Positions 15,184-63,060 of a stretch of DNA of 64,000 bases are shown piece after piece; position 1 is the first letter of the stretch, and each line of letters opens with the position of its first letter. A program made the position numbers and the translations under genes. Under the pieces are notes generated by a model that worked only from the letters and a program-made list of their open reading frames with translations, was not told where the DNA came from and did not search any database. Source of the DNA: Cymbidium sinense (taxonomy: Eukaryota; Streptophyta; Magnoliopsida; Asparagales; Orchidaceae); the NCBI GenBank assembly GCA_021442155.1, contig CM038228.1, positions 15,293,179 to 15,357,178 of the forward strand, read 5' to 3'.

Positions 15184-15188
15184 GCCAA
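15184..15188. repeat. LINE target-site duplication, 5' side of the element
   Basis: GCCAA, identical to 12356-12360. Confidence 0.7.
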
Positions 15189-28440: not shown

Positions 28441-28697
28441 TCAAATTTATTGGATGGAAATTTCATTTTCAAATAAAGTAACATTATTTTGAAATGCCAC
28501 TTAACATATTTCATATATGATTAGGTTGGGATTTCCTCTTTCAAAAAGCAATAATCACACACAAAATATACACCTTTGAAAAATGCAACATAATTGATTT
28601 CCATATTACATACCGAAATTTGTTAAATGGAAATCTCCCTTTTCAAAAATCAATAAAAAACAAAAATTTCCAAAATACATTTGAAACTTCAATCTAG
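28441..28697 (+). mobile_element. Leader fragment of the Ogre-like family
   Basis: Aligns with 61700-61960 in element c. It keeps one clear hairpin, GATTTCCAT and ATGGAAATC enclosing a variable inner stem and the loop TACCGAAATT (about 28599-28635). It is cut by the (TA)n tract at 28698. Confidence 0.65.
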
Positions 28698-30679
<1,982 letters not shown>

Positions 30680-37262: not shown

Positions 37263-39219
37263 ATATGATATTTATTAAATCAAATACCATGAATAAAAAG
37301 AAATGTGTATGCTATTGATGATGAAAGTGGTGGAATGCATCCATGTTATAGTGATTCAATTTTATTAATCCTAGGATGCCTTTCATGTTTGGATAAGAAT
37401 CTTTAAGACTAACCCAAACTTAGGTTTAATAAATGTTTAATAAATGATTCACCAAAGAAACCAAAGTCATAATAACATACCTTTAAAAATAACTTAGGAT
37501 AAAGATGAAGGGGTCAAACCTCTTTCCTATTTATAATAAATATATATTAAGTAGGCATCAAATGAAATAAAAGAAATGTAAATTAAAAATTTAATCCTAA
37601 TGATTTGAAGTGCAACCTCCCATAATATTTAACTTAAACATCCACTTTAGATAATTATACTTAAAACCTTAGACATACCACCCACCTTAGCAACATTAGA
37701 ATACTAAGTCACCAATTCTAGCTTTTAGGTTAGGCCAGTGTATGTTGTGATGTTATGTTATATGTTATGAAATAGTATTTTAGACTAGATGTTAGGATTG
37801 TTTATGTATAAACTGAATATTAGGTTGTTAATACCTTAATGTTATTTTTTTGCATGGGATTATGTTAAAGAGGCTGAAATAATAAGTAAAAATATATGTT
37901 CTTGCTTGTAGGTTGCTTATGTCCTAAGCATAATCCAGTTAGGGAGTGGGCTTGACTTGTCCAAATATGTGAAATATAATCTCTTGGCTTATATGTTTGT
38001 TTAGCTAATATTTGTTTTGTAGGTGTAGTTAGATTTTATTTTCAATAACGTGTAATATTTATAATAAAAATTTGGATTAGTGCTATAGGGTTTATGATGG
38101 CGAGTTAGAAGGCAAGACACGGAAGGCTTTGTGAAAACTAAACAAACCAATCAAGAGAAGGAAAGAAGATTGAAGACCTTCATAGCAATCATTGTAATTG
38201 TAATATTCAGTTGTAATTTGAGTTGTATATAATAGAGTTGCTATCAATTTCTTCTTTTTATAATGGTACTTATCATCACCTTTTATTTATTTTTAAGAAA
38301 TTCATATGTTTGATTATTATGTTTAGTTTGTGCAATAGAAATGGCATGATTTTCATAGATTTCTTAAAGTGTGATGATTTGATGTGTGGCCTGAATGTGG
38401 TAGGCTCTTTAAGATAAAATTAAATTTTTAATCCTCACTAAATAACTCATAACTAAATTTTAATATAACTCATAACCTCATCTTAAAGCCTAAGTTCTTT
38501 ATCAAGATAAATAAAAGATTTAGTGACACCTTAGCTGGATATTGTATGTTATCACACCATGCATGTCGTATTATACCAATCTTGAATAGGGAGGGCCTCC
38601 ATTATTGCACAATAGGGGATACGCTTGACCTTTGAGGGTGATCCCTTGTAGTGGAGAACACCTCCTCTTTGATTAGAAATATTTCATCATGCATATAGGA
38701 ATAATTGTTCTAAGCCTTAGTCTGAAATGAATGTGTCAAAATGGTGTAAAAAGATTATAAATTTTTGCATTATTCTAAGTCATGTTTTCATACCAAACAT
38801 GATCTAGTCTCTTAGGAAGTGAGTGTAGGACTCTAGCTTCCTTCCTAATTAAATAACTATTGACCTCATTTTTAAAATGATCTCTCAATCCCTCCATCTT
38901 AGACATAGAACTTCTCTTAGACTTTAAGAGTTTCTTAGTCTTAAGACACATCTAGTGATTAGGTGAACACTCATAGCCACAGAGACTTAGAATAGTTAGC
39001 CATAGGAATAGGTCATGCCTTAGGGGTTAGGAAAATTTCCTACCCTTAGCTTGAACCATTCCTCACCTTCCTTCCTTGGTCAAACTCCAAATCAATCTTA
39101 TTTGATTTTCTCCAAACTCAAATCAATGCCACATGATTGAAATCCATGATTGAAATCGTGATTGAAATCCATGATTGCTTGATTAAATCCATGATTGAAA
39201 TCATGATTTAAAAATTTAA

Positions 39220-39620
39220 GTCAAATCTTTAAGTCCTTAATCTTCTTTTAAGGACTTAGCCTAAATCATGATCAAACCAATTCAAACTCATGAGATTTTC
39301 TCATAATTCATTTACATTCTCATTTACATTCACATATAGAAATGAAATATAAATTCAAAACAATCAAACCAAACTCAAAATTCAAAATCAATTCATAAAA
39401 TTTCCTAAGTCCTTTAAATTTTCCTTCATGGACTTAGCCAAAATCAACTCTAAATCAATTCAAATTCATGGGATTTTCTCATAACTCATTTATATTCTCA
39501 TTTATATTCACACATATAAATGAAATATAAATATAAATCAAACAAATCTAAATCCAAAATTCAAGCTCCAAACTCCAAAAATTTCCTATGTCCTTTAAGT
39601 TCCTCTTAAAAGACTTAGCC
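39220..39620 (+). repeat. AAGTCCTT hairpin repeats in LTR b
   Basis: Three units of about 170 bp with arms TAAGTCCTT and AAGGACTTA around an AT-rich loop (the third is imperfect). Each is followed by a second inverted pair of the type TCATTTATAT and ATATAAATGA. Homologous to 27780-28440 and 54070-54500. Confidence 0.7.
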
Positions 39621-39899
39621 TAGATCATGACCACATATATAAACAAAATATATAAATTCAAACAATCAAAACCAATTCCAAAATCAAACTCAAATCCATT
39701 AAATCCAAGCCTTTCAAGTCAAATCTTGAACTTAGTCAAATCAACTTCAAATCAAGCCAAACTCTTAATTTTCCTTCATGATTCAATCAACCCTACAATC
39801 ATGAATCCAAATATAAATACATACTTCAATCACTTAACCAAAATCCAATTAAAAAGTCAAGCCAAAATCCATTTCATGTTCACCCTTTGAACTTGAAAT

Positions 39900-41050
39900 T
39901 GTCAAATGAATCAAAACCCTTTTGACTTCAAACCATTTGCAAATGGATTTATATTTCGATCATAAGTCCATATACAAGTTCAATTAAACTCAAATCAAGC
40001 TTTGACCAAGTCATTTGACTCACTTAAACTCACTTGACCCAAAGTGACCTAAAGTACCCTTAAGAGCCAAATTTTAATCATAACTAAATTAAATTGAACT
40101 AAGCCCATCTATGCCTCTCATCATGATTAACAATCATCATGGGATGATCAATCAATCAAATTGGGTCAAACCAAATCAAGTTGACCAAGTCAACTTTCTT
40201 AAAAAAACCAACATAGCCAAAATTCAACATAGGCCAAATTGATTGAAACCATTGATCTAAGTTCATTCATGAACTATGTTTGAACTTGACCAAGTCAACA
40301 TTTGAGCCTAACCTAGCCAATTGGCCACTTGAAGTTGACCCAACTTGACCTAAAAAGTCAAAATGTGTCAAAACTTGATGCCAAATGATTGAAACCAATG
40401 GGTCAAGTTTATTTCAAATCACTTGTTGAACTTGAAAGCCTCAATTGGAACTAACTAGCCCAATTGACCTTGAACCCAACTTGACCTAAAGGGTCATGTT
40501 GAGCAAATTCAAACTTAACCAAAATTGATTGAAACAAAGATACCAATCCACTTCACATGATTAAAAACCTAAACCTAAACCCATGACCTTATGTCAAATG
40601 GGTCAAATTGGTCAACTTGACCATTTGACCTAAATGAAGTCATATGAGCCAAACTCAAAACTAAACCAAATTGAATCAAACAAAAGCCACCAAAACATTT
40701 CAAATGGTCATATGAACTTTAACCCTTAGTTTGACCAATTTGACCAATTGGTCAACTTGACCCATTTTGATAAATGGGTCAACATGAGCCAAACCATATC
40801 AAATGAACTCCAAATCCAATGAAACTTGGCCAAACCTATTTTCTCAACATACATATCCAAATTCAAAATAAACCAAATGGCCATTCTACCCCAAGGCCAT
40901 AGAACAAATTAAATCCATGGGAATTTGGTCAAGTCCTCTTCATATCAACTTGATACCTTCCTAAAAGGTCAAGTAGACCCTATGGATGGTGGCGCACCCA
41001 ACCCAATGGGTTTGGGTCTACCCAAATGGACCCAAGGCCAAAATTGACCC
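39900..41050. promoter_or_regulatory. TTGACC/GGTCAA-dense zone of LTR b
   Basis: TTGACC, GTCAA and their complements recur every few tens of bases; 40740-40755 is a perfect 16-base palindrome, TTGACCAATTGGTCAA. TTGAC followed by C or T is the W-box core bound by WRKY factors. Whether these act as W-boxes is inference. The same zone is in LTR a (33180-34430) and LTR c (54950-55780). Confidence 0.5.
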
Positions 41051-44000
41051 CATAACTCAAATTGGCCAAATAGAAAACTTCCCTCCACTTGATTTGAAGC
41101 ACATGGGAGGTTACCAATCAACTCCTTAGCTCAAATAGACCATGTGCCAACTCCTAAAAACTCAGATAGACCTTTCCATATTGGCAATTGGATCAAAATG
41201 ACAAGATAAGGATCCATTGCCATGGGAGATATACTCCATATTTCACTTCAATTTTTAATATGCATGTCGATTGAGTAAGAGAGAGTCAGAGGAGCCATCT
41301 TAGAGTGATCCTAAGCTCTCTAGAGGGAATTGAAATCAACCATTCTCAGTTTTCTTCAAGAGAAAAATGGGGAGCTCCAGATTTCCATACTTCCTCCACC
41401 AAATCCAACTCATTGCCTTTGCACACTCCTCGACCAAACCGAGCTTGCCAGCTCCCTCAAGTTTCAAAGGCAAGGGAAGGCTCACCTAGATCAAAACTGA
41501 GCTCACAAGGAGGAGGGGTTGGTCCATAGAGCAAGCTACTCAACCTTAGAAGCTAATTCTTTCACCACAACTTCATCTCAACCAAACAAAGCTCCTCTAA
41601 GAGAATTGAGCGCTAGTGATCACCTCTGGCGAGGTATGACATTTTTTGATCACTAGACTTAAGGTGTGTTGCTCTTTTATGAAAGAAAGTGTAATGGCAT
41701 GAAATTCTGACCATTGGGATAGGAGTGTTAAATGGTGTGTGCAAAGTTTTATTATAATCCAATCGATGAGCTTGGATCACTAGAACATGGGGCGATCTCC
41801 ATGATTCGCTTTGCGGGGATATATCTCAGATCCATCCATTTTTGGATGGACGAGATTAAACATGTTTTATATATTTATCCTTTTAAAACCAGATTCCATT
41901 CGATCCTTGATCGAACAATGTATCATAACCATGTCCCACCACCTGCATGATGAGATGTTTAAGTGCTCATCGATGGGAAGTGCTACCGTTGCAGTGTCGA
42001 CATGGATTAAAGGATTTAGTGGTTTTATAATTCTAATTAATCCTCTAAGCTATGAAAATTCATATCTCCCTAAATAAAAATAAACAAAATATGAAGTAAA
42101 TTTCCACTGAAAGATAATTCAATCTAGAATATTCTAAAATTAGTTTTAATGGATTTTATATTGTATCTTTCTCTGATTTTACCTTTTATTAGAAATATTA
42201 TTTTTCTAATTACTTCTTAATTAATCCTCTGATTAATCTCAAACTTCTTGGGTATATTTTGGGGATGACTTACTTCTCTAATTTTCTTGGGATTTGATGG
42301 CTTATTGAATTGAAAATGCTTTCCTAATCCCTTTATGTAATTAAGGATATTAAGGTTTGATTAGTGTTTTAATCCTTATTGAAGTTAATTAAGGTTTGAT
42401 CCAGTGAATAGGAGACTTAGGGAATAATTTTGGGGTATTTCTCTAAGCTATTCCCTAAACCCCTTTCTTTCCTTAATCTCTCTTAATTAAGGAATTCATT
42501 AATTACCCTCTTAATTAATTTCTAAAACCTTTCAAAACTTAATTAATCTACTTTGGGTTGGGTGTTCAAGAACCTAATTTCAATTAAGGAAAGCTCAACT
42601 CATATGTGTGGGGTGTTTTGAAATTACTTAAGTTAAACCCCTTAGCTTAATTAACATTAATCATGAGCCAAATTGCATTAGGCCTTTTCTTCTAGGTGCA
42701 TTACAAATTTAAATTCCTTGTGAGATTTTATGTCATCTCATTGGCTCATAATTATTTTTTTAATTATGTTAAGGTGGTGTATGTAAGGGTTAATTAACAT
42801 GCTTAATTCATACCTTAACCTAATCAAAATTTAAAATAAATATAATCATCTAAAATTAAAAAAAAATGTCAAACACATGTGGGAATGGTTAGGAATAGTA
42901 AACTCAACTTACATTTTTAAAATTCTGTTAAATTCAAAATCAAACAAAAATCATATTAAATAAACTTTGATTTACTTTAAGCTTTCTTACTTCATAAGAT
43001 TGTCTTTAGATTTAATTAAAGTGAATGTGTTTACATGCTTTCATTATTTTAATTCTTTCCAACATGCTAAATATGTATGTCATAGTGGTTTCATGCATCC
43101 ATGCTTTTCAAAATTAATTTAAAATGAAAATGTTTAGTTTTATCAAAATTGCATGTGTTTAAGTAAGTATTAAATTCAAACTATTTTCAAAATATATGAA
43201 TCAATTATCAAAACTGAAAGTGTACTTATATCTTAATTATAAGCTTGCATGTGAGTAAAATATAAGGATGTGCTTAGTGTGGTTCTCTCTCTTTTAGTAT
43301 AGTTTTGAATAGGATTGGGAAGGTGTGGTTCATTTGAAAAGAACCTAACACTTGTAATTCTAGATCCTTTTATTCATGCTATCACTTAAGAAGGATACCT
43401 ATGCTTGCACATATAAAATGCATAAAAAATAAATCAACTAATACAAATTTTTTGCATTCTTTCTTTTCCATTCATTTCTTTTGTACACATGTTTGTATTT
43501 AAGGAAAGTGGTATATTAGTCACGGACAAAGAGATTTTGAGGCTTTAAAGTAGGTCTTGTATCTTACACTTTGGTTAACAATTGTACTCTTATACCTTTT
43601 CTTCATGTGTGTGCATGTGAAAATGTAAGAAACCCTTTTCTACTTAATGAAAATCATGCATCATAAACTTTCAAATTTCCTTAAATGAATTACTTAGCAT
43701 GCATCATAAAGTGTGTTAAACATTCTCATTTGTATGTATATATATGCTTAAGACTCATTCATATGCATGTTATACATGTTGGGAAAGAAATGAAGTGATG
43801 TATAATTGGGAATTTGGTTCATTTTATTTAATCTTAAAATGCCTTTCTTTTTGAATGCATTTGTTTAGAGTTAATCTAAACTTAGGATTAATTAAAACAC
43901 TTAATCAAAACATTCACTAAACAAAACCAAAATATGAATCCACTTTATAAATTACTTAGGTTAGGGAAGGAAAGAGAAGTTCTCTTTTCTTTCCCTCTCT

Positions 44001-44644
44001 TTATAACTTAATAATTAATTATAGAATTCACTTGAACCTAATCGAAACATGATATAAAATCAACCCAAAATAATTAAATCATTTAAATGAAACCCTCCTC
44101 TAAGTTAAACATGCTTCACACTTAGAAAATTCTAACTTAAAGCCATAGCCAAGCATACCACACAAACCTCCAAAGCACACACATTAGGCTAAGTCACCAC
44201 TTCTAGCTTTAGGTTAGGGCGATGCATGGTTTGATGCTTGCTTTTATTTTATGATATATGTTTTAGAGTTTATGTTAGGATGTATAAGAGAATGAATGGT
44301 ACAATCTTAGTCTAACCATTATCTTCTTGGGATTGTGCTTAAGAGCTTGTAATAAATAAAAATATAAATGTTTTTTGTTGTGCAAGTGCTTATACCTAAG
44401 CATAATCAAATAGGCAGTGGACTTAGTCACCCATGTGGGTGATAAGTCAATATACATCTTGGGATTTTGTGTGGTTTGTTTAGCTAACCTTTGTTTTAGG
44501 TGTTCTAGATTTACTTTTCATGTAAACTTTACAATTAGAATTTTGGAATGATTTGTTATGGGGATTAGGATAAGCATTGGTCACAAGATCCTATCTTATG
44601 CACCATGTGAAGCCTTTGGAGCATCCACCTTCAACCATCCAAAA

Positions 44645-44705
44645 GGAGGAACCAAAAGAAGAAGAAGAAAGAAGAAGAAAAGAAGAAAAGAAGAATGAAG
44701 AAATG
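44645..44705 (+). repeat. AAG-rich purine tract in LTR b
   Basis: Almost uninterrupted A/G run of AAG and GAAG words. It recurs in LTR c at about 59500-59560. The small ORF through it is Glu/Lys-rich and not a gene. Confidence 0.75.
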
Positions 44706-45330
44706 AAGCTTGAAGACCCCATAATTTCAAATATAATTCATTTGCAATCAGTTGTATAAAATAGAGCTATCTCAATTTTGTTTTAGGGTTTGTCTTCACA
44801 ATGGCCTCTTATTTTTTTGCGATTAGCTTTATAAATTGATTGATGATTTGTTTAGCTTGTGCATTAAGTGGCATCATTTTTCTAGTTTCTTCCTTACTTT
44901 ATGTATTGCCTCGATGTGGATTAAGCTCTTAAGGAAAACTAAATCTTTTACCAAATCTAACAACTCAAAATTGAAAATAAAAAATAATCTAAAAGCTTAG
45001 GTTAAAATCAAGATAAAAGAATTAGCAACCCTTAATGATGAGTATTTCTTTTTATAACATCATGCACAAATGCATCTTATTTCACTCTTGATTGGAGGGC
45101 TTCCACCTTTATTGGAGAAACTTGGCTTGACCTTTGAGAGCCATGGTGGAAATACACCTCCTCCCTTCTTTTTGGCCAATAACTTTTTTAGTTCATAATT
45201 AGCTAAGTAAAATGATTGTCCAAAAAATGAAAATAAAAATGAAATCTAAATTGCAATAGATTTAGGTCATTTGAAGCATGCCCTTACATGATCTAGTCTC
45301 TTCAGGGAGTGAGTTTAAGGACTTAGTCTC

Positions 45331-46095
45331 ATTCCTTAGCATACCAAATTTGCTAAGGAGAAGTTTCCATTTTCAAAATTGAAACACAAATAAAAGTTTG
45401 AACACATCTTTTGGAATTTCATTTAGCATAACCAAATTTGCTAAGTGAAATTTCTATTTCACAAAATTAAGTGGGACTTCATCCTTAGCATACCATATTT
45501 GCTAAAGTAAAGTTTCTACTTTCAAACAAATCAAAACATAAATGAAACACATTAGGATTCCCTTAGCATACCTAAAGTTGCTAAGGATCCTACTTTTTCA
45601 AAATAAAAATAAAAAAATGAAACACCTTAGGATTTCTTAGCATACCCAAATGCTAAGAATCTATTTTCAAAAATCAAAAAAACACACTTGGGTTCTTCAC
45701 TTAGCATACCTAAATTTGCTAAATTTAATTTCAAAATCAACAACAATTCACCAAAAAAACTTTCAAACACTTCACTTAGCATACCCAAATTTGCTAAGTA
45801 AAATTCCAAAATCACTAAACAAAAAATAAAAATCAATTGACCCTTACTTTAACATACCCAAATTTGTTAAAGGAAAGGGTCCTCAAATCAAAAGAAAATC
45901 TAAATTCAAACAAATTTGAACCTATGGAAGCATCCTTCTCAAAATATTTGAATCCATCTTTCAACATACCCAAATTTGTTGAAGTTGGATTCATATTCAA
46001 AAATTTCTCTTTCAATCAAATTTCTAAATCTTCTCAAATCCATTTGAACCCCACTTAACACTTCCAAGATGTTGGATGTGGGTTCAAATTTTCAA
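45331..46095 (+). repeat. Array of covarying hairpins in the leader of element b
   Basis: About ten inverted-repeat units lie roughly 60-100 bp apart, most with loop TACCCAAAT or a close variant. Arms differ in compensating pairs: CCTTAGCA/TGCTAAGG (45334-45358), AATTTCATTTAGCA/TGCTAAGTGAAATT (45415-45452, one T-G), TTCTTAGCA/TGCTAAGAA (45634-45659), ACTTAGCA/TGCTAAGT (45774-45799), CTTTAACA/TGTTAAAG (45847-45872), and TTCAACA/TGTTGAA inside GAATCCA/TGGATTC (45950-45992). The last unit (about 46046-46087) has outer arms GAACCC/GGGTTC. The array lies between LTR and gag, so it would be in the genomic RNA. Base pairing appears to be kept while sequence changes, which points to selection for RNA or DNA structure. 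Confidence 0.8.
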
Positions 46096-47940
46096 TTCAA
46101 ATTCAAAAATCAACAAAGATAGAAATCTGATCCAAGCTCATTTCCTATTGCAAATTCTCAGATTCGATGATGTATAGCTCAATTTTTTTCTTTTGCTTGA
46201 TGCGAAATGGCGAGTAAATTTGTTTTCACTTTCCTCATGGAATGGATTTGGCTTTGGACCAAGCCAACTTCCCCCAATTGGATCATACACATCTTATCCA
46301 CTTTGGTAGGGATTGAGGAGTGAGGATTACATGTGAGGCACTCCCCTCATGACTCAAAGGGGAAGGTGGCAAAGCGGTCATCATCGGATTGATATACCGA
46401 TTGACATCTCCTCATTAAAGAGGAAAGTGGCAGTCCACCGGCATAGTATAGCATGCCAACCCCAATTTTTAGTGCCATGGTTTCTCATGAGTGAGGGCTA
46501 GCACCCTCTCATCATACCTCTAAGGGTAAGGCTCCCTGATCTCGGGGATTGCCTCCCCACACTTTTGAGTATGGGTCTACTCTCACTCCTCACATCCTAC
46601 GGACACAGGAACAAAATACATGATCAAGCGGTATCACACTAGGATTGCTAGAGATGGAGGACCCGTTCTTGTTGAGAGTTTCATTTTACTTTGCCCTTTG
46701 GTTATAGAAAGTTCCATCCTCTCTGGGTCAAACAAGAGGATGTTAGGAGGATTCACATCACCTCTACGTGGTCAACATCGACGGTAGTTTTGAGGTCATT
46801 TTCGACCTCGATTATCTTGTTGGGTAGGTGGAGCTTACGATGTTGATGCGGAGCTCAATTTGATCTGAGATCCATTATCCTCTATAGTGTGGGAAAACAT
46901 ATCCTTCAGGAGAGGGCCATAGAGGCCCATACATCTTCTCACATTACTAGTAGGGAGAGGCAGAGGTTGATCGGTCAGCGACTTCACACTTGTTGATTTT
47001 AGCTGGTGCTACATGCATATCATCTTACTTAGGACCGGTCATCAGGGAGGACAACTCATGTTCATAGAGAGTCGGTGGTGTCTCCACCACTCACCCCATC
47101 ATCCATCAAGTCACAGTATCTCTAATTCCATCGAAGTCCATGAAGGCCATATCCAAGGAGAAGCCTACCTCGTTGGTGATCTACTAGAGGATCTACTTCA
47201 TCTACATCTATTATGGTGGGAGCTCTCTACTTGACCTTCTACCCCAATGGTGGTGCGGAAGGAGTGGCAACCCCGAAGCATGGTATCCCTTCACCAACTC
47301 CACCGGTTAGGGGCGTGGAGATGGTAGATAGCCAGGATGATAGTGGAACCTCCTAGGAATGCCATCCCTTTCATACAGTGATAGTCGAGTGTCTCTCAAG
47401 AGTATGCATCCTCATAGGATTGACTCTCCAATAGAGGTCGTGCCTCTTGTACGGTGATCACACTGCTGATTATTTATTCTCATTTAGATAGATCGTTCTC
47501 TTGAGGAGATAGTAGCACATTATCTAGTAGAGAAGAAGGATATTGTGGGATATGATTGGTCAGATGAGGAGAAGGTCAGCTTCGATCCCAACTAAGATGA
47601 CTTGTTAATAGGTCATGGAGTGCAGAGATCTCTCTCAGGGTGAGCCATGGAAGGTGATGAGGTTGATCAGGAAGACACCAATCAGCCCAACACCTCCGAT
47701 ATCAGTTGAAACAAAAGATGAGCAGATAGATAGGATGGCATAGAGGACTTGTTAGCGCAATATCAATACTCAAAAAATAAGCCCTAGCAGTTCATCCCCT
47801 ACACAACGATTACGAGTTAGTGCATGTCTTGGACCCAGCCAAGACCTTACCTCCCATTGAGCAAGGTAGCACTAGCATGTATAGGAAGGTAGTGGAAAGT
47901 ACCTCCATATAAGAAAGGACATCAGATCCATGGTTGAGCA
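46096..47940 (+). other. Leader and pre-gag region of element b
   Basis: GC-richer than the LTR. It aligns with element c from about 63060 to the window end. Short open frames (for example 47013-47234) have no recognised domain. A stretch reading IDRSLEEIVAHYLVEKK (about 47490-47540) may be the N-terminal part of gag. Ogre elements often carry an extra ORF before gag, but I cannot identify one here. Confidence 0.45.
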
Positions 47941-48920
47941 TTAAGTGAAGGAAGCATTGGCTCAAGCGAGGAGGATCATCGGTTCCAAAGGGTAGATCCT
48001 ACCTGAAGGAATTCAATTCAATCTAATTTCCCAAGGGTTTCGTACCACCTTCCTTCAAAATATTTGATGGCAGTGGAAACCTAAGCGCATAACACTTGAG
48101 CCATTGCAATGAGGTGGTATGATGCTTTGCTATTCTACCTCTTTGTTAGTAGCCTAGTAGGGATTTCTTTTGATTGGTATGTTGAACTGCCCAACGGTTC
48201 AGTAAATACATTTGCTGAGTTAGAGAAACTCTTTATCAAAAGGTTTGCTAAAGCTTAGCAAAGAGTTACTGTAGGTGATCTTGTTGAGCAATAATACCAG
48301 TGAGTCCTTGTTGATTATATTCTTGATGGCATAACGAGTATGAAAACCTATGAGAACATGCCATTGAGATTCTTTTAAAGAATATCCATGGCATGGTTTC
48401 CTTTATGCTTAAGGGATTCACTATCAAGACATTTGAGAAGCTAATCAACAAGGCGGCTAGTCTACAAGGAGAGGCCAAAGTTGCCTTTATATCAGTTACT
48501 AAAAAAAATACAAAGGTCTATGAAGAAGCGGTGTGATGGTAGATAAGGGGAAGCATCCTAGAGATTAGTTTGAGACACGACCTCTGACCTCCACCTCCTT
48601 TCCACCATCACCCTAGGCCTCCACTCAGCCTCCATGACCACCTCACCTCCTTATACCATACCAAGCGGAGTGGCACACATACACGCCATGTAGCTATGGT
48701 CCTACTCTTTTAGATAAGTTTAACAAACCTTATTCATTTAAGAGGAGTGTCGGAAGATCTTTAAGAATCTCTTAAAGAAACTTGATTTTCAGCTACAAGC
48801 TAGGAGGAGGAAGTAGGCAAAGTCATGATCAAACTTTTCCTCTACCATCATATGCTAGGCCATGTTTTGGAGGATTGCTTCACATTTAAGGGGCTTGAAC
48901 ATAGCTTCAAGATCTGTTAG
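47941..48920 (+). pseudogene. Gag of the Ogre/Tat-like element
   Basis: Readable blocks: PPSFKIFDGSGN (about 48049), then DWYVELPNGSVNTFAELEKL and FIKRFAKA (about 48174-48258), the conserved core of gypsy gag proteins. Further on, GHVLEDCFTFKG (about 48860-48895) resembles a zinc-knuckle half. Gag would form the virus-like particle. Stops follow FAKA and occur elsewhere, and a frameshift lies near 48100, so it cannot be translated whole. Confidence 0.7.
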
Positions 48921-49539
48921 TTATCCCAAAGGAATACCTTGTGGAACAACCATCAGTTCCATTAGGGTAATCCTTGGGGATACATGTGATCCTTAACTAA
49001 AGAAGGTTGGGATATTTCTTTATCCAAAACCTCTAGAAGATCATCAGAAGATCAAGAAACTTTCCTTGTAGGTGCACGTCACAAACCTCCAACATCAAGG
49101 AAGGTTTGCAAGTTGCCAATGCCAACTCGAGGAAAATCAAGCAGTGCAATATGTGCGACCCGGATAGCCCTAGCACTACCAGTCCGACCTCCATCCTATA
49201 GTTTTAGCTTCCACATCGATGATTTCTTCAACTTCAGCTAGCTCTTCTTCTTCTACTTGTAGAACTCTCTCGATGGATAAGATCAAATCCTTACCACACT
49301 TTACTTGATTTCTACTTTGTACCTCCAAAAAATTTAGAAATTGAAGAATAAAGCTAGTTTGAATTACATCATGTCATCGATGGGTTGTCTTCTTTTATTC
49401 TAAAGATAACTCTTCAAGTCAAAATAACTAAAGATTGATCTTCCTCTTTGATTTGAGTTGGACTTTCCTACTCTAATACTACGGGTTCACCTCTTGAGAT
49501 AGACTTGGAATCATCGATTCGAGTCCCATAGGAGAAGTT

Positions 49540-50330
49540 ATAGGTGAGCGATGTGGTAGAACCTTCCATTACCACGCCTCAGAGATCACCAAAGTCAACC
49601 TCCATTGTGGCAAGGTTCTACCTCTAGGGCAACACCTCAAGATAGGGAAACAAGTCATTGGTATAGAGGATTGAGAAGCCCCTCCATAGGATGCTCCACC
49701 CTTGGATATGCTTGTGGAGGATGTCCAAGGTGGACTATGTCCTTCTCATCTAAGAAAGTTTTATCTAAGCGGCATATGATGCCCTTGTCTTATCCAAAGA
49801 GATGAGGAATCACTAATCAAGGCTCTCCTTGATCTAGAAATATGCTCATTGACCACTATAGTGAGGAGGCACATTATATAAAGAAGCTGGGATCACCACA
49901 GATGAAGACCTTCTTATGGACTTCCCTTCCCTCATCATAATTGACATGGAGGTTTGACTCGAGTTCTTGTGGATTAGGTGCATTGGTGAACATTATGAGT
50001 CTAAAGACCCTTGCTTATTTGAGGATCAACATCTCCACACTCAGGGGTGATGATGTTGAGAGGATTCAATGAACAAGGGCTTTAGGTTCCATAGTGTTAC
50101 CTTTGGAGATAGGTGATGGAGAAGCCAAGTTTTACATCATTGATTCGAATACTTTCTTCACTATTTTGCTCGGTAGGCCTTGAATACATTAAAGCAAGAT
50201 AATTCCGTCCTCCCTCCATCAGTGCATCAAGTTTAAAAATGATCAAATTGAATACTATGTCAATGGAGATGAAAAGCCATTTTTAGTTAGAGAGGTTAAG
50301 ATTTATGAAGATGTGACCTACTATCTTCCT
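49540..50330 (+). pseudogene. Aspartic protease region of the Ogre/Tat-like element
   Basis: The strongest block is LLGRP near 50170 followed by SSLHQCIKFKNDQIEYYVNGDEKPF (about 50213-50285). This is the end of the protease fold with the tail typical of the Tat/Ogre lineage. The upstream active-site triad is not readable. An A/G-rich run (50350-50460) separates it from the next block. In the family it cleaves Gag-Pol. Confidence 0.6.
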
Positions 50331-52260: not shown

Positions 52261-52630
52261 CCTCTTGCATTGGATGACTCTCGGCACTTTTGTTGGCCCA
52301 AACCAATGAAGGAAAGGAATGCTCTCTACTACCTCATCATTGTTCTTGCGAAAATACCCATTTATTGAGAAATATTTCCTAGCTTTGATCTTTGCTTCCC
52401 AAAAGTTACGACACTATATGCTTTCTCATAAAATGAACTTGATCTCTAGAACAAATCCACTGCAGTACCTCATGACACGACCAATATTATCCGGATGTTG
52501 GAATGCTGGTCCATGATTCTCTTGCAGTTTGATAACACATTCGTACCCCTCAGTGTGGTAAAAGGATAAGTATTAGTGGATTTCTTAGCAGCACACCCAC
52601 TTCTCGATTCTGCAGTGATGATCTCACGAT
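52261..52630 (+). pseudogene. First RNase H of the Ogre/Tat-like element
   Basis: Weakly readable. LLAQTNEGKE near 52290, then a region ending in LEQIHCS/PLQYLMTRP (about 52450-52490), fits the typical gypsy RNase H just after RT. Several stops and shifts. Confidence 0.5.
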
Positions 52631-53090
52631 GAACAAATCATGAACTTAGGGGAGGCCAACACCAATGGGAGATGTATTTTGATGGTGTAGCTTCTTTTCA
52701 AGAAGCACCACGATCTATTCTCCAGGAAAGGCGGGGTAAATAGTTCTCTAACTCCAACTATGATGTGATGAGATTCTCATACTATCTTTCCAACCTGCAC
52801 CAACAACAAAAGTATGAGGCTTTGATTGCTTGGAGAGTTAGCCATCACTATTAGTGTCAAGAGCATCAACATCTTTGGGGATTCTCGGTTGGTTATCAAC
52901 AGTTCTTTGAGTCCTTTCAAACTCAAGCTTATCATTACTATGATACCATGAATGTTGGCCCAAATTCACAGTTACCATCTACAAGGTTCTCGAGTAGAGA
53001 ATCGTATAGATGCTTTGGCCAAACTTGCCAAAGAGTTGGCATGTCAGGAAGATGAGTCCATTTCAATAAGGGTCCAAAATAGACAAGTCC
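52631..53090 (+). pseudogene. Second (archaeal-type) RNase H of the Ogre/Tat-like element
   Basis: Reads WEMYFDGVASFQE (about 52669-52707), then QKYEALIAW (about 52808-52835), and near 52890-53070 a stretch that ends in a frame with ENRIDALAKLAKELAC (about 52998-53044). The FDG start and the DALAKLAKELA end are the marks of the additional RNase H that defines the Tat/Ogre lineage. The middle is frameshifted. Confidence 0.7.
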
Positions 53091-53149: not shown

Positions 53150-53751
53150 GGATGAGGAGCTAGATTGGAGGCAACGTTCATAGATTACTTGAACAGACAA
53201 ACTATCTGAAAAGTCACAAGCATTCGGGTAAAATAGAGCTCTCTCTATGCTCTCGTTGATGGCACCACAATGCGATGGTCCTTTGACCATGTTATTTGTT
53301 TGTAAACATGAAGCCAGGCATTATGCGAGGTACATTCAGGTCTATGCGAGCACATCAATCCGTCAAGATGAAGCAGATCAAAGACTAGGATACTCTCGGC
53401 CTTTGATTACAAACCACATGGATGTAGCTAGGAGATGCCATCAGTGTCAGGTGCATGGTGTGGTCCTCCACCAACCACCCAATATTCTACACCCTACATT
53501 AGCTTCATTGCCATTTGAGTGTTGGGGTACATTGTAGGGTCGATCCTCCTTCTTCAAGGGCATCGATTCATCTTAAACCACTTTTCCAAGTGGAAAGCCA
53601 TCACTCAGAGGTCACTCGGCATGTGCTGATTTTTTGAACCATATCAGATAGGTTGGGGTGCCTCGATGAATTATATCATAATGCGCATTCAAAAGCACCA
53701 TGATCAACATCTTTGCCGAAGATTTGATGGAGATACTCACCATCTACTTGT
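53150..53751 (+). pseudogene. Integrase of the Ogre/Tat-like element, cut by element c
   Basis: An open stretch (53247-53537) includes ARRCHQCQVHG, whose CHQC (53436-53447) is the second half of the HHCC zinc site, and HPTLASLPFECWG, the block leading to the catalytic core. The core continues with FSKWKA (about 53586) and GVPR (about 53656). It stops abruptly at 53751 where LTR c begins, before the C-terminal part. Integrase joins element DNA to the host chromosome. The rest is predicted beyond the far end of element c. Confidence 0.75.
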
Positions 53752-54069
53752 TGACCTCATTTTTTAGAATGACTCTCAATCCATCTTGGGCATAGGATTT
53801 CTCTTGAACTTTAAGAGTTCCTTAGTCTTAAGAAACATCTAGTGATTGGGTGGACACTTAGCCACAGAAACTTAGAAGAGTTAGCCATAAGAAGGTCATG
53901 CCTTGGGGGTGTTAGGAAAATTTCTTTCCATAGCTATTCCTCACCTTCCTTCAAGTCAAACTCCAAATCAATCTTATTTGATTTCCTCTAGACTCAAATC
54001 AACTCCATGTGATTGAAATCCATGATTGAAATTTGTGATTGAAACCCATGAATCAAATTCCTAAGTCTA

Positions 54070-54500
54070 AAATTTTTTAAGTCCTTAAATTTGCCTTTAA
54101 GGACTTAGCCAAAATCATGATCAAATCAATTCAAACTCATGGGATTTTCTCATAACTCATTTATATTCTTTTATATTCACATATATAAATGAAATATATA
54201 AATCAAATCAATCAAAACAAATCCAAAAAATTAAATTCCAAATTTGAAATTTCTTAAGTCCTTAATTTCCTCTTAAGGACTTAGCCTTTTATGATCAAAT
54301 CACTCAAATTCAAGATTTCTCATAACTCATTTATATTCACATATATAAATGAAATATAAATATAAATCAATCAAAAAATTCAAAATTCAAATCAAACCAA
54401 AATTTCTAAGTCCTTTAAAATTTCTTTTTTAATGGACTTAGCCTAAATCATGATCAAATCAATTCAAATCATGAAATTTTCTCATGATCATTTATATTCT
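54070..54500 (+). repeat. AAGTCCTT hairpin repeats in LTR c
   Basis: Units near 54077, 54254 and 54408 with arms AAGTCCTT and AAGGACTT (the last less exact), as at 39220-39620. Confidence 0.65.
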
Positions 54501-54949
54501 CATTTATATTCACATATATAAAAAAATAAAAAAAATCAACAAATATAAAAAAAAAAAAAATTTAAAAGTTTTTTTTTTAGAAAATATATGATAAAATCAA
54601 AATCTTAAATTTTATTTTTATTTATATTCTCTTATATATATATATATATATATATAAATTCAAACAATCAAAACCAATTCCAAAAATCAACCCAAATCCA
54701 TTCAAAATCCACTAAGCCTTTCAAGTCAAAATCTTGAACTTAGATCAAATTTTTAAATCAAGCCAAACTCTTGATTTTTCATGATTCAATCAACCTACAT
54801 GAATCCATATATAAATACAAACTTCAATCACTCATCAAAATCAATTCAAAATCAAACCCCAAAACATTTAATGTTTACCCTTTGAATATGAAATTACCAA
54901 TTGGATCAAAACCCATTTGACTTAAAACCACTTGCAAATGGATTTATAT

Positions 54950-55780
54950 TTCAATCATCAGTCCATATACAAGTTCAATCAAACTCAAATCAAGCTTTGA
55001 GCAAGCCATTTGACCCACTTAGGCTCACTTGAAAGTGACCTAAAGTACTCTTATGAGCCAATCAAACCAAATTGGATTGAATCAAACTCACCTATGTCTC
55101 ATCATGATCAATCATCATGGGATGATCAATCAATCAAATTGGGTCAAACCAAGTCAAACCTAAGGGTTGATCAAGTCAACACTTAGCCCAAAATGAAATA
55201 ACATAGCCAAAATCCACCATAGGCCAAATTGATTGAAACCATTGATCTAAGTTCATTCATGACTATGTTTGAACTTGACCAAGCCAACATTTGAGCCTAA
55301 CCTAGCCCAATTGGCCACTTGACCAAGTTGACCCAACTTGACCTAAAGTCAAAATGTGTCAAAACTTGATCTGAGCCAAATTGATTGAGACCAATGGGTC
55401 AAGTTCATTCCAAATCACTTGTTGAATTTGATTAAAGCCTTAGACCCAACTTGACCTAAAGGGGTCATGTTGAGCCAAATTCAAACTTAACCAAAATTGA
55501 TTGGAAAAAAGATACCAATCCACTCCATATGACTAACCAAACCTAAACCTACCCTTGACCTAACCCAAATAGGGTCAAATAGGTCAACTTGACCCATTTG
55601 ACCTAAAATGAAGTCATATGAGCCAAATTCAAAATAATCCAAATTGAATCAAACCAAAGCCACCAAAACATTTCAAATGGTCATATGAACTTGACCCAAG
55701 GTTTGACCAATTGGTCAACTTGACCCAAGTTGACCCATTTTGACCTAAATGGGTCAACATGAGCCAAACCTATCAAATGA
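54950..55780. promoter_or_regulatory. TTGACC/GGTCAA-dense zone of LTR c
   Basis: Same composition as 39900-41050. The perfect palindrome TTGACCAATTGGTCAA lies at 55703-55718, and a second inverted pair, TTGACCCA with TGGGTCAA, lies just after it (55730-55757). Confidence 0.5.
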
Positions 55781-58700
55781 ACTCCAAATCTCATGAAACT
55801 TGGCCAAACCTAGTTTCTCCACATACCCAACATATCAAATTAAAAATTAGCAAATGACCATTCTACCCCTAGGCCATGAACAAATTATGGACTAATCCAT
55901 GGGTAATTTGGTCAACCCTCTTCATCTTGATGCCCTAAAGAGGTCAAGTGGACAACCCAATGGGTTGGGTTGAGTCAACCCAAATGGACCCAAGGCCGAC
56001 CCCTTGCAATTTGGCCCATTCAAAATCTCCTTCCACTCAATTTGAAGCACATGGGAGGTTATCAATCCACTCAAGACCTCAAACCATAGCAAGAAACAAC
56101 CTCCCTCATGTGGTCAATTGGATCAAAATGGCAAAGCTAAGGCTCGTGTCGATTTCATGGAGATATACTCCCCTAATTCAATTGAAATCATCATTCCACA
56201 TTCGATTGACTGGTGTGTTAAAATAGCTTTAAGAGGATTTGAGATAGCCACTTCTCAGTTTTCTTCCTTAGAAAATAGGGGAGCTCACTTCAATCCTTAA
56301 CTTCCTTTATATTCAAATCTACTAAAATTCCTCTTGTACACTCCCTCAAGGGATCAAGTCGAGTGCACCTAAGCTCTCATTCATGTTCCCAAAGCAAGGA
56401 GAGTCTCAATTGGATCAAAGCCGCAAGGAAGAAAGTGTTGGTCCATAGAGAACACTCAACCAGGCTTGAAACTTTCAATAGCTTCATCTCCACTAAACAA
56501 GCTACCTCAGCTCAGTGATCACCTCTCTGAGGTATGGAATTTTGACCACTTAGCTTAGGGTGTTGGTCTTTTTGAAAGCAATGTCATGAGAAATCCACCG
56601 TTCGATAGACTTCTCATTAGCTTTAGATGGTGTGGGTAAAGTCTCATTCCAATTCAAGCTCAATTGAGCTCAGATCTTCTGCTAGATCATGGATGACCTG
56701 TTGATTGAGAACTTGGGTGATCTCGTCATCCATGCATTTTGGATGGATGGCCGATTCCACATTTTAGAATTAATTTATCCCTTTTATAGGGATGATCATT
56801 CGATCCTTGATCGAACAGATCAAGCGCTTCTAGCACCATCACCTTAATGGCGAAGTGGTAGCTCATGGCGCGATGCATGTAAAGCGCCGCCATCACCACG
56901 TGTCGTTATGGTGAGAGGAAGGGATTAGTTATTTAATTTTTAAATAATTCTAATCTTTCAAAAAAATTCATATCTCTTCAATAAAATTCAAAAAAAAAAA
57001 TGAGGTAAATTTTGTGGAAAGATAATTCAACCTAGAATATTTTAAAATAATTTCAATGGATTTTGAATTATCTTTTTTGATTTTGGGTTTTAATGAAATT
57101 TCATTTTGCTAATTACTTTTTTAATCCTCATTAATCCCAAACTTCTTGGGTATGTTTTGGGGATGACTCTACCTCCCTAATTTTCTTGGGATTTATTTAA
57201 GGTTTAATTGGAATTACAAATAATTATTCTCTTAATTAATTATATAATTAAGGTTTGATTAGTGTTTTAATCCTCATTATGAGTTGATTAAGGTTAGATC
57301 CAGTGAATAGGAGGCTTAGATAATTTTGGGGTATTTCCCCAAGCTATTCCCTAAACCCTCTTTCTTAATCTCTTAATTAAGGTTAATTCATTAATTATCC
57401 TCTTAATTAATTTCTAAAATTCTAAAAACTTCCAGAACTTAATTAATCTACTTTGGGTAGATGCTTAGGTGTTTAGATCTAAGTTCAATTAAAGAAATCA
57501 AAACCCAATTCATATGTGTGAAGGGGTGTTTGAAATTACTTAAGTTAAACCCTTAGCTTAATTAACCATTAATCATGAGCCAAATTGCATTAGGCCCTTT
57601 TCTTCCTAGGTGCATTGCAATTTAAATTCCTTGAGTTTTATGTCATCTCATTGGCTCATAATTACTTGTTAACTATATAAGGTGGTGTAGGTAAGGGTTA
57701 ATTAATTTGCTTAATTCATACCTTAACCTAATTAATATATATAAAATGAATCTAATCATCTAAAAAAACAAAAATATCAAACACATGTGGAATGGGTTAG
57801 GAATATAAAACTCAACTCATTTTCAAAATTAAATCAAATTTTAAATCAAACAAAATCACATTGAATTAACTTTGATTTATTTTAAAGCTTATTCCATAAG
57901 AATGTCTTTAGGATTTAATTAAAGTGAATGTGTTTTTTGCTTTCATTGCTTTGATTCTTTCCCAACATGTTAAATTTGTATGTCATGTTTCATGCATGAT
58001 ATTTTTTAAATTCAAATTTAAAATGAAATTGTTTACTTTATGTCAAATTTGCATGTGTTGGCTAAAGTAATAAATTCAAATTATTTTCAAAACATATAAA
58101 TCAAATTATCAACTGAAAGTGTGCTACTTATATTTTAATTATAAGCTTGCATGTGAAATATAAGGATGTGCTTAGCGTTTCCCTTCTCTTTTTTATGTTA
58201 GTATAGTTTTGAATAGGAGTTGGTAAGATGTATGGTTCATTTGAAAAGAACTAACACTTGCCTAATTCCATATCCTATTCATTCCTATTATCACTTAAGA
58301 AGGTTGCTTATTTTATAAATTGCATAAACAAAATGAATTAACAACTTTTGCATTCTTTCTTTTCATTTCTTTTGTACATATGTTTTTATTTAAGGAAAGT
58401 GGTATATTAGTCGACAACCCGAGGTTGTGCTAAAAGTCTTGTACCTTACACCTTTGGTTAACAATGGCGTACTCACTTATGCCTTTCTTACTTTCATGTG
58501 TATGTGAAAATTGGATAAGAAAACCCTTTCTACTTAATGAAAATCATGCATCTTAAACTTCCAAATTTCTTAAATGAATTACTTAGCATGCATCATAAAG
58601 TGTGTTAAATATTCATTTGTATGTATATAGATATTCTTAGGATTTATTCATATGCATGTTATATATGTTGGGAAAGAAATGAAGTGATGTGTGTTATGTA

Positions 58701-60297: not shown

Positions 60298-60316
60298 GTT
60301 GGCGACCCCAGTTGTA
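60298..60316 (+). other. Candidate primer-binding site of element c
   Basis: GTTGGCGACCCCAGTTGTA follows the LTR end. TTGGCGAC is the usual start of primer-binding sites in Tat/Ogre elements, which pair with a host tRNA 3' end. The match after the first nine or so bases is imperfect. It is absent from element b because of the deletion there. Confidence 0.55.
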
Positions 60317-61489
60317 AGTCCAAGCTGGTTTGTTCTCTGTGGAGACAAACCAATTACCCATTTTGCCTTAGATTTAGGTTGTGCTTTTGACCCTCAAAGC
60401 TAGATTTAGGTTACGAGGTTGCTTCTCCCTTTGTGGGCCATAAGCATAATTCCTCACCACTTAGGCATTTCCTTCTTGTGTTAAGGAATCATAAGTCCTA
60501 AATTTCTAATGAAAATTCAACTCAAACAAATTAAATCAATTTCAAAATGTAAAGCCCAATAGGATAGTTTGAGATGCTTTAGGTTTCTAGCATCATGAGC
60601 ATCTCCTACTTATCTTTCTTTGGCTTTGATAATAACTCCCTCTTTGATCAATCCCATTTGATCTTCAAAAATGAACTAATCAATTGATAGTCCTTTCTAT
60701 TGAAATCTTTGAATGATCATTTACCTTATTCTAAGGGATCATTCCTTAGATGTAATTAACTATGGGGCTTGCCCAGTAGAGAACAAACGATTTAAAATAA
60801 ACCACTTTACTTTTTTATGTAAAGTAGGGAAGAATCTAGTACATATCGGACCCATATCCTTAGGAGTCCTTATTGGTGATTAGGTCCATTAAAGGGTAGT
60901 GACTTCTATCTCTTGAGATAGTACACTTCACTTGATACATGATAATCTATCATTTCCAAAGATGAATTTTTTTATATTCTTGCCTTTTCACCAATAGATT
61001 TGAAGGTGACCAATATAGAAAATTTCTCCATAGATTTTTTACGACTGAGGATGGTTCCTCTCTCCATCTTTGGTAAATGATCATTGTCTTTTGAGTATCG
61101 ATAATAGTGGGTTTGTACTTTGGTATGAATCCAAATTATCTTTCTTTCCATTGGCACTTAGCTTATTTCATTCTTAAGTTAGCCAACATCTTTAGGTTTT
61201 AGGACCTCAGTTGGTCTTAAAACCCCGTTGGGTTCTCAATGGGTAAAATAAAAGATCTAAATAAAAGAAAACATTTAAAGACTTCCTCCTTATCATTTTT
61301 ATGATAAGGAAAGGTTCATTCAAAATAATAAAAAATAAAATAAATTTCATAAGAACTTTTGCTTTTCAAAAAAAAGCACCTTTTCAAAAATGCACTTAAT
61401 AAAATATTTTCCACAAAATTTTATCACCTCATTTAACAATTCTCATAATTGTTACATGTAGAATTTTCAAAATAACTAACAATTTTCCA
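60317..61489 (+). other. Leader of element c before the hairpin array
   Basis: Between primer-binding site and hairpins. No gene recognised. A run of CAAAA-rich sequence begins near 61370. Absent from element b. Confidence 0.5.
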
Positions 61490-63060
61490 AAAGCACAAAT
61501 GAACATCTTCTTTCAATTCATTTTGATGAAGATTTCATTTTCAAAATAAAATGAACAATCATCTTTCCAAAATCAAAATCAAAATAAAGTTTTCAAAAGC
61601 AAACATGAACCTTTCCTTTCAATACACTCATATTGAATGGAAGTTTCATTTCAAATAAATTAAATTTTCAAAAGCACATATGAACATCTTCATTTAATAT
61701 ACTCAAATTTATTAAATGAAGATTTCATTTCAAATAAAATAACATCATTTGGAAATCCCACTTAAACATATCTCACATGATTAAGTTGGAATTCCTCTCT
61801 TTCAAAAAATCAATAATCACACAAAATAAAAAAAATCATTTTCAAAATAAGATTGATCTCCATTCTACATACCAAATTTGTTGAATGAAAGTCCTCTTTT
61901 CAAAATTGAAACTTAACAATCATATTTTCAAAATTCAAATACATTTGGAACTTCATTTAGTATACTCAAATTTTAAGTGAATCTCCAAATCAAAATCAAA
62001 ATTTTTAAAACATTTGGAACTTCATTTAGCATACTCAAATTTGCTTAAGTCTCCAAATCAAAATCAAAATTTTTTTTTCATTTGGAACTTCATTTAGCAT
62101 ACTTGTAAGTGAAGTTTCCAAATCAAAATCAAAATTTTCAAACAGGAACTTCATTTAGCATACTCAAATTTGCTAAAGAAGTCTCCAAATCAAAATAAAA
62201 ATTTTCAAAACACATTTGGAACTTCATAGCAAATTTGCTAAGTGAAGTCTCCAAATCAAAATCAAAAAATTTTCAAACATTTTGGAACTTCATTTAGCAT
62301 ACTCAAATTTGCTAAGAAGTCTCAAAACAAAATTTTTGGAACTTTATTCCTTAGCATACCAAATTTGCTAAGAAAGTTTCCATTTTCAAAACACAAATTT
62401 GAACATATCTTTGGAATTTCATTTAGCATACTCAAATTTGCTAAATGAAATTTCCATTCAAAACTAAGTGGGACTTCATCTTTAGCATACCATATTTGCT
62501 AAAGTAAATCTCCACTTTTCAAATCAAAACAAAAATGAAACACTTAGGATTTCTTAGCATACCTAAATTTTAGGATCTTTTTCAAAATCAAAACATCAAC
62601 AAATAAAATTAAACACTTAGGATTTTCTTAGCCAAATTTGCTAAGAATCTATTTTCAAAAAATCAAACAAAACACACTTGGATTCTTCACTTAGCATACC
62701 TAAATTTGCTAAGTGAATTCCAATTTTCAAAATCAAACAACAATTCACAAAAGAAATAATATTTTCAAAACACTTCACTTTTAAATTGCTAAGTAAGTAA
62801 AATTCAAAATCATCAAATCAAAAAAATCAATTGACCCTTACTTTAACATACCCAAATTTGTTAAAGGAAAGGGTCCTCAAATCAAAATCTAAATTCAAAC
62901 AAACATGGAAGCATCCTTCTAAAATATTTGAATCCATTTCAACATACCTAAATTTGTTGAAGTTGGATTCATATTCAAAATTCCTCTTTCAATCAATTCT
63001 CAAATCTATTTGAACCCCACTTAACACTTCCAAGTTGTTGGATGTGGGTTCAAATTCAAA
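61490..63060 (+). repeat. Array of covarying hairpins in the leader of element c
   Basis: Roughly twenty inverted-repeat units, including all those seen in element b plus more upstream. Best examples: ATCTTCATTTAATA/TATTAAATGAAGAT (61686-61723, 14 perfect pairs, loop of 10) and TTCACTTAGCA/TGCTAAGTGAA (62686-62717). Others are CTTTAGCA/TGCTAAAG near 62480 and CTTTAACA/TGTTAAAG near 62842. Loops are TACTCAAAT, TACCCAAAT or TACCTAAAT. Some units near 62220 and 62570-62640 have lost one arm or part of the loop. Arms differ between units but stay mutually complementary. Confidence 0.75.

What the first reader, a model, noticed from the sequence alone, without database searches (positions are those of the whole stretch)
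45331..46095. Array of hairpins with compensating stem changes in a retrotransposon leader
Seen directly: about ten units with near-constant loop TACCCAAAT but different, mutually complementary arms (CCTTAGCA/TGCTAAGG, TTCTTAGCA/TGCTAAGAA, ACTTAGCA/TGCTAAGT, CTTTAACA/TGTTAAAG, TTCAACA/TGTTGAA with outer GAATCCA/TGGATTC). Paired change with a fixed loop is the signature of selection on structure, or of inverted-repeat gene conversion within each unit. Its place between LTR and gag suggests a role in genomic RNA: packaging, dimerisation, translation control, or Dicer substrates for small RNAs. I know of no described element of this kind.
Basis: partly seen in the sequence, partly recalled or inferred. 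Interest (0 to 1): 0.88.

Follow-up and report, generated by a model that had tools for sequence, protein, structure and literature searches.

The report
Hairpin array in a retrotransposon leader
An abundant plant jumping gene carries, just after the site where its reverse transcription starts, a row of some twenty small hairpins whose stems differ while the loop stays nearly the same, a pattern that suggests selection on folded RNA and possibly a landing pad for a packaging protein.

Summary
The five quoted arm pairs are present in 45331-46095, which holds 10 hairpin units and folds far better than shuffled sequence (z -9.0). It is a truncated copy; one at 61280-63055 has 23 units. The host genome (3.53 Gb, unnamed) gave 11,095 first-look candidates, 40 scored. 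Comparing both ends of one copy puts the array in the 5' leader, about 225-255 nt after the LTR end and before gag.

Arms fit their own partners better than swapped ones (0 of 50,000 permutations for 23 units; 5 of 50,000 for the reported ten). Loop positions TA...AAATT rarely carry shared variants (5 of 34; 24 of 38 in the rest of the loop). This supports constraint on stem and loop while the element was active. Against an RNA-only reading, G.T is not tolerated better than A.C; DNA-level arm correction is not excluded. Stems are short for Dicer, loop-loop pairing is weak. Best guess: a multivalent protein-binding platform for packaging. The element is probably Ty3/gypsy, Tat lineage.

The parts
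45333..45359 (+). hairpin unit B14 (first kept in this copy)
45413..45454 (+). hairpin unit B15
45470..45520 (+). hairpin unit B16
45553..45592 (+). hairpin unit B17
45634..45659 (+). hairpin unit B18
45701..45722 (+). hairpin unit B19, inner stem; outer stem decayed
45774..45799 (+). hairpin unit B20, inner stem
45839..45881 (+). hairpin unit B21
45949..45993 (+). hairpin unit B22
46042..46089 (+). hairpin unit B23 (different loop)
61280..63055 (+). fuller array of the neighbouring copy, units C01-C23; the last ten (C14-C23) are the counterparts of B14-B23
28487..28645 (+). two units (A06, A07) of a third, fragmentary copy that breaks off at an AT repeat
61030..61055 (+). decayed LTR end / primer-binding-site region, about 225-250 nt before the first hairpin; other copies read TGGCGACTCCGCTGGGGA-like here
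48100..48255 (+). gag remnant downstream of the array (PF03732, E 0.0047, below Pfam's cut-off)
52310..52513 (+). reverse-transcriptase RNase H remnant (PF17917, E 6.7e-08)

Best explanation
The feature is the distal part of an array of about 15-25 hairpins in the 5' leader of an abundant LTR retrotransposon, probably Ty3/gypsy of the Tat lineage. The array starts about 225-255 nt after the LTR end and primer-binding site and ends before gag. Units arose by tandem duplication (inferred). While the element was active each unit was kept as a hairpin, mostly of 13-18 Watson-Crick pairs in the better units, carrying a near-constant ten-base loop, so that stems diverged in step while the loop did not (shown as a statistical pattern). 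The most likely mechanism (inferred) is a multivalent RNA landing platform: many stems display the same loop to one RNA-binding partner, Gag/nucleocapsid or a host protein, to select and compact the genomic RNA for packaging and reverse transcription. Confidence: about 0.9 for structure and location, about 0.75 that hairpin and loop were under selection, about 0.35 for the packaging function itself. The number below is for the chain up to 'selected RNA structure acting in the genomic RNA'.
For: Fold z -9.0 on the + strand. Native hairpins beat arm-swapped chimeras: 23 units of copy C -13.7 v -8.1 kcal/mol, 0 of 50,000 permutations; ten divergent C units 0 of 50,000; ten B units 5 of 50,000. 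On a MAFFT alignment not fitted to the structure, 25 of 36 units: 79.9% of cells paired v 69.8 shuffled, 56 two-sided changes v 28.6, covariation 0.384 v at most 0.216 when slid. In 40 genomic copies two-sided changes 73 v 40.5 +/- 4.9 cells (Watson-Crick 51 v 28.6 +/- 4.1, maximum 41; slid 6-17). The mean fold of each of the 23 units over 24-28 copies is -8.3 to -18.6 kcal/mol, including units decayed in the window; no shuffles were run there. Loop positions TA...AAATT in 11 units: 29 rare v 5 shared variants, loop CYY positions 14 v 24, p 3e-5; against A/T-matched spacer sites 32 v 19, p 0.028. Shared transversions are fewer in stems than in gap-safe spacers (A/T sites 24:3 v 22:13, p 0.039; C/G sites 16:9 v 4:10, p 0.048). 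Position in the leader.
Against: No excess of G.T over A.C on the transcribed strand in the three strand-neutral counts (23 v 26), which selection on RNA pairing alone should give. Transitions in stems are not depleted relative to gap-safe spacers (p about 0.5). Among 13 closely related core units the arm-swap effect is weak (329 of 50,000). The alignment for one search left out 11 of 36 units, the decayed or irregular ones; there the number of further pair types did not exceed shuffles (23 v 23.2). Tandem units can be misaligned or converted between copies, which would mimic two-sided change. Stem pairs were chosen for recurrence, which favours conserved columns. After matching for base type the loop test is only p 0.028. 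All copies come from one genome and a star-like tree. There are no transcript, protein-binding or transposition data.
Confidence: 0.5

Rival explanations
1. DNA-level or reverse-transcription-level correction: during reverse transcription or replication the polymerase switches template within each imperfect inverted repeat and copies one arm from the other. Arms then stay complementary without selection on function; the hairpins are by-products.
For: G.T and A.C are about equally common, as expected if neither strand is favoured; both strands fold better than shuffles (z -9.0 and -6.5); 11 two-sided Watson-Crick states are seen in one copy only, beside 17 two-sided mismatches, and could be recent corrections.
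Against: It does not predict a conserved loop core with rare but few shared variants, nor 15-25 hairpins in each of the 27 copies counted.
Confidence: 0.25
2. Dimerisation array: the loop end with its closing bases reads CAAATTTG, self-complementary, so loops of two genomic RNAs pair as in retroviral and Ty1/Ty3 dimer initiation sites.
For: CAAATTTG occurs 261 times in 54,089 bases of 27 arrays; the A and T positions of this core are the conserved ones; Ty3 and Ty1 dimerise through short 5' motifs (PMC11381356 passages; PMC5454406 abstract).
Against: The part that is single-stranded in the loop (AAUU) gives +1.6 kcal/mol; pairing becomes favourable (-6.2) only if closing pairs open. Units with loops TACCATATT or CTTCCAAGA lack the full palindrome.
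Confidence: 0.12
3. Selfish tandem repeat: inverted-repeat units spread by slippage or unequal exchange as in the hypervariable non-coding repeats of Tat elements, with no function; the similarity of arms is recent common ancestry.
For: Tandem repeats in non-coding regions are common in Tat elements (PMC7004042 and PMC6317226, passages); hairpin number varies between copies.
Against: Units of very different sequence are hairpins; shared variation is depleted in loop core and, for transversions, in stems while rare variation is not.
Confidence: 0.1
4. Source of small RNAs (Dicer substrates) or a translation-control leader.
For: A double-stranded transcript in the leader could feed silencing; long structured leaders control translation in plant pararetroviruses (PMC5902531, start of abstract in the search listing).
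Against: At most 19 Watson-Crick pairs per unit, shorter than a 21-24 nt product; upstream ATGs are not clearly depleted in the array (16 seen, 20.1 expected), so it does not look cleared for scanning.
Confidence: 0.06

Closest known systems
Hypervariable tandem repeats in non-coding regions of Tat/Ogre retrotransposons (Macas et al. 2009, cited in PMC7004042, not read; passages of PMC7004042 and PMC6317226 read)
   Same: Tandem repeats in a non-coding part of a large Ty3/gypsy element, varying in number and sequence between units.
   Different: Those are described in the 3' UTR; this array lies in the 5' leader and its units are hairpins with matched arms and a near-constant loop. The word hairpin does not occur in the main text of either paper.
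Dimer initiation and packaging hairpins of Ty1, Ty3 and retroviruses (PMC11381356 passages, PMC5454406 abstract)
   Same: Hairpins or palindromes in the 5' part of the genomic RNA; loop motifs constrained.
   Different: Those elements rely on one or a few motifs; here there are some 15-25 near-equivalent hairpins, and the loop palindrome is AU-rich and too weak to pair by itself.
Second hairpin array of the same element (27817-28430, 39200-39640, 54040-54480)
   Same: Tandem hairpins separated by A/C/T-rich spacers.
   Different: Two other hairpin types (CTAAGTCCTTAA.. and TCATTTATAT..), period about 160-178; paired change of arms was not tested; it lies upstream, in the LTR or the adjoining 3' region.

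Membership tests
Ty3/gypsy LTR retrotransposon | gag, then RT-RNase H, then integrase order | tested here: inconclusive
   PF17917 at 52310 is clear (E 6.7e-08), gag at 48100 is below cut-off (E 0.0047); the integrase zinc-finger remnant at 53232-53534 is recognised by eye only, without a Pfam match
Ty3/gypsy LTR retrotransposon | Long terminal repeats flanking the internal region | tested here: met
   one copy examined at both ends (L002): direct repeat with a shared end, 83.8% identity over 1.3 kb; LTR start not resolved
Tat lineage | second (archaeal-type) RNase H domain, in angiosperm Ogre/Retand between RH and integrase | tested here: inconclusive
   fragments at 52633-52948 look right by eye (recalled motif) but give no Pfam match; definition from PMC6317226 passages
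Tat lineage | non-Met primer tRNA (e.g. Arg) at the PBS | tested here: inconclusive
   several copies read TGGCGACTCCGCTGGGGA-like directly after the LTR end; likeness to the Tat/Ogre PBS is recalled, no tRNA was aligned
Tat lineage | very large LTRs | tested here: inconclusive
   in L002 the matched ends of the downstream repeat lie about 7.6 kb apart, the middle was not fetched and the LTR start is unresolved
Tat lineage | non-coding regions with tandem repeats | tested here: met
   two hairpin arrays
3' UTR tandem repeats of Tat elements | location in the 3' UTR | tested here: not met
   array follows the 5' LTR of L002 and is absent from the 3.1 kb fetched after its downstream repeat
Retroviral-type dimer initiation site | loop palindrome able to form a stable intermolecular kissing helix | tested here: not met
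   loop self-duplexes +0.4 to +1.6 kcal/mol; -6.2 only with closing bases included
Known structured RNA family (Rfam) | match at gathering score | tested here: not met
   0 matches in the window
miRNA / Dicer precursor hairpin | stem long enough for a 21-24 nt duplex | tested here: not met
   at most 19 Watson-Crick pairs in any of 36 units under a lenient gapped score

The most novel reading that the evidence does not exclude
A retroelement leader that works as a multivalent RNA scaffold: 15-25 tandem hairpins, each with its own stem but one shared loop, evolving by duplication and compensatory change to display a repeated binding site for Gag or a host protein next to the primer-binding site. 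This would be a packaging or replication signal organised as an array and not as one or a few hairpins.
Probability: 0.3. Interest if true: 0.8.

Novelty: new variant of a known kind. Interest (0 to 1): 0.6.

Why it matters
Packaging and dimerisation signals of the giant plant Ty3/gypsy elements are, as far as I recall, undefined. An array with very many genomic copies and built-in replicates (many stems, one loop) makes the question testable by covariation, structure probing and binding assays, and gives a natural experiment on compensatory evolution among tandem duplicates.

Tried and rejected
A PBS at 60290 (TTGGCGACCCC), suggested by eye, was rejected: other copies read differently there, and the LTR end lies about 750 nt further on. 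The idea that the array belongs to the LTR itself was rejected by the two-ended comparison of one copy. RNA-only selection as a proven statement was rejected because of the G.T/A.C balance. RNAalifold per unit over copies left 12 of 23 units without a structure because of gaps and prefers G.U pairs, so its pair counts (250 GU, 38 AC) were not used, only the per-copy folds. The loose first arm-swap score, whose split was optimised on the own partner, was replaced.

Public collections: one pol piece and one exact hairpin pattern against viral contigs gave nothing, Rfam gave nothing; other plant genomes were not available. A diverged family was sought next to L002 (L056): it holds an LTR-like stretch without this array in 5.5 kb (best model match E 0.15), so no diverged leader was obtained. 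An apparent 5'/3' arm difference in shared C>T/G>A variants (16 v 34, on 73 sites each; private 20 v 18; p 0.08) is left unexplained.

Rows dropped before counts: 11 of 36 units (C01, C02, C03, C08, C09, C10, C12, C17, C18, C20, A05), mostly decayed or irregular, were not in the alignment; A05 not; loop counts use 11 of 23 units with the standard loop; L027 (same locus as L017) left out of copy counts; L020 and L029 (no clear array end) left out, put back.

Literature: searches (PubMed Central open licences only) listed no paper on hairpin arrays in plant retrotransposon leaders; subscription papers such as Macas et al. 2009 were not available.

Full report
Observation. The stretch 45331-46095 contains ten units in which two complementary arms flank a loop TAC[C/T][C/T]AAATT. 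Folding each unit gives -11.6 kcal/mol or better for eight of ten; two have lost most of the outer stem. The whole stretch folds at -173.1 against -100.4 +/- 8.1 kcal/mol for 20 dinucleotide shuffles (z -9.0); the other strand has z -6.5. Strict hairpins number 4 against 0.53 expected.

Extent. The window holds three related pieces: A (27817-28701), B (38860-46968, with the finding) and C (53751-63868). C has 23 units at about 61280-63055; B starts in the middle, because the stretch between C 60219 and C 62346 is missing, so the reported array is the last ten of some 23. A model built from 25 of 36 units finds 28 plus-strand places with E <= 1.3e-5, all in A, B or C; 25 of them are the training units, three (61941, 62010, 62078) are new; the best place elsewhere has E 0.2.

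Genome. The window lies in an unnamed 3.53 Gb genome (a plant, inferred from its size and elements). The C array as a query gave 11,095 first-look candidates, of which 40 were scored and 30 loci fetched; 11 more pieces from that list were fetched later. Copies share 88% identity on average over aligned bases and form a star-like tree (28 copies), as expected of many dead copies of one active line. Each of 27 copies has 15-25 hairpins by a strand-neutral score, and the mean fold of the 23 orthologous units over 24-28 copies is -8.3 to -18.6 kcal/mol, without a shuffled control.

Place. For copy L002, upstream and downstream pieces were compared. The direct repeat that marks the LTR ends 225 nt before the start of the matched array stretch (about 255 before the first hairpin), and the array is absent from the 3.1 kb fetched after the downstream repeat. 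At the repeat end several copies read TGGCGACTCCGCTGGGGATGG-like, a primer-binding site; in window copy C it is decayed near 61040-61054. Right of the window, C continues into sequence like 47109-49923, the stretch that holds the gag remnant. The element is probably Ty3/gypsy: PF17917 RNase H is clear, gag is below cut-off, integrase was recognised by eye only. A Tat-lineage assignment is likely but its defining second RNase H was not confirmed. The start of the LTR could not be fixed; the two copies examined (L002, L008) seem to have internal sequence of another copy in front.

Do arms change in step? (1) Swapping halves between units: native mean -13.7 v -8.1 kcal/mol for 23 C units, no permutation of 50,000 as low; ten divergent C units, none of 50,000; ten B units, 5 of 50,000; 13 closely related core units only 329 of 50,000. 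(2) On a plain MAFFT alignment of 25 units (11 decayed or irregular ones left out), a 14-pair stem has 79.9% paired cells (69.8 +/- 1.4 shuffled), 56 two-sided changes (28.6 +/- 5.1), and a covariation score of 0.384 against 0.077-0.216 for slid partners; pairs with a two-sided change (11 v 8.9, 31 of 500 shuffles) and further pair types (23 v 23.2) hardly or not at all exceed shuffles. One pair is G-C in 13 and A-U in 12 units with no intermediate. (3) Across 40 genomic copies and 288 recurrent pairs, both sides differ from the column majority in 73 of 9,443 cells (40.5 +/- 4.9 shuffled, maximum 58); 51 are Watson-Crick (28.6 +/- 4.1, maximum 41; slid 6-17). Caveats: pairs were selected for recurrence, and conversion or misalignment among tandem units can give the same signal.

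Was it selected? Variants seen once are mostly decay after insertion; variants shared by copies arose mostly in the active line, although recurrent hits at mutable cytosines also make sharing. In 11 units with the standard loop, positions TA and AAATT have 29 rare and 5 shared variants, the CYY positions 14 and 24 (p 3e-5). Part of this is base composition: against A/T spacer sites free of gaps (32 and 19) p is 0.028, or 0.012 when shared means three or more copies. Stems have fewer shared transversions than gap-safe spacers (p 0.039 for A/T sites, 0.048 for C/G sites) but no fewer shared transitions. G.T after one-sided change is no commoner than A.C among variants seen once (57, 64) or shared (41, 57). 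So hairpin and loop appear constrained, but nothing shows that pairing is read in RNA; template-switch correction of arms remains the chief rival.

Mechanism. A near-constant loop on varied stems fits recognition of the loop by a protein, with stems serving as scaffolds; the place after the primer-binding site fits packaging. This step is inference. Loop-loop kissing through AAUU is unfavourable (+1.6 kcal/mol; -6.2 only with the closing bases included). Stems are short for Dicer. The array is not clearly depleted of ATG (16 seen, 20.1 expected).

Known context. Tandem repeats in non-coding regions are a recognised property of Tat elements, notably in the 3' UTR (passages of PMC7004042 and PMC6317226). 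Ty1 and Ty3 use a few 5' hairpins or palindromes for dimerisation (abstract of PMC5454406, passages of PMC11381356). Seven library searches listed nothing on hairpin arrays in plant retrotransposon leaders. I therefore rate it a new variant of a known kind.

Noticed in passing
27817-28430, 39200-39640, 54040-54480: Second hairpin array in the same element: period about 160-178, two alternating hairpins (CTAAGTCCTTAA..TTAAGGACTTAG and TCATTTATAT..ATATAAATGA); 6 strict hairpins v 0.17 shuffled in the first place, 2 v 0.28 and 5 v 0.47 in the others.
   Followed up: partly
1184-1801 (and inverted similar stretch 15186-16968): Viral movement protein domain (PF01107, E 7.4e-31) within a stretch that has an inverted relative in the window: looks like an endogenous pararetrovirus.
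   Followed up: no
37352-38850, and L044/L056: A diverged duplicate (about 65-68%) of the right part of the LTR block precedes the second array here, and a similar order is seen beside L002, suggesting an internal duplication or a recurrent tandem order.
   Followed up: partly
45331-45334 versus 60219-62346: Copy B joins LTR sequence directly to hairpin unit 14; the LTR end, primer-binding site and 13 units present in copy C are missing.
   Followed up: yes
window copies B and C, L002, L008: LTR-internal-LTR-internal order in the window and, it seems, at two other copies examined: tandem copies may be common.
   Followed up: partly
stems of 27 copies: Shared C>T/G>A variants are about twice as frequent in 3' arms as in 5' arms (34 v 16, on 73 sites each) while private ones are equal (18 v 20); p 0.08.
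   Followed up: partly
28699-28812: The third copy of the array breaks off at an (AT)57 repeat that begins inside a CTAGCATA unit.
   Followed up: no
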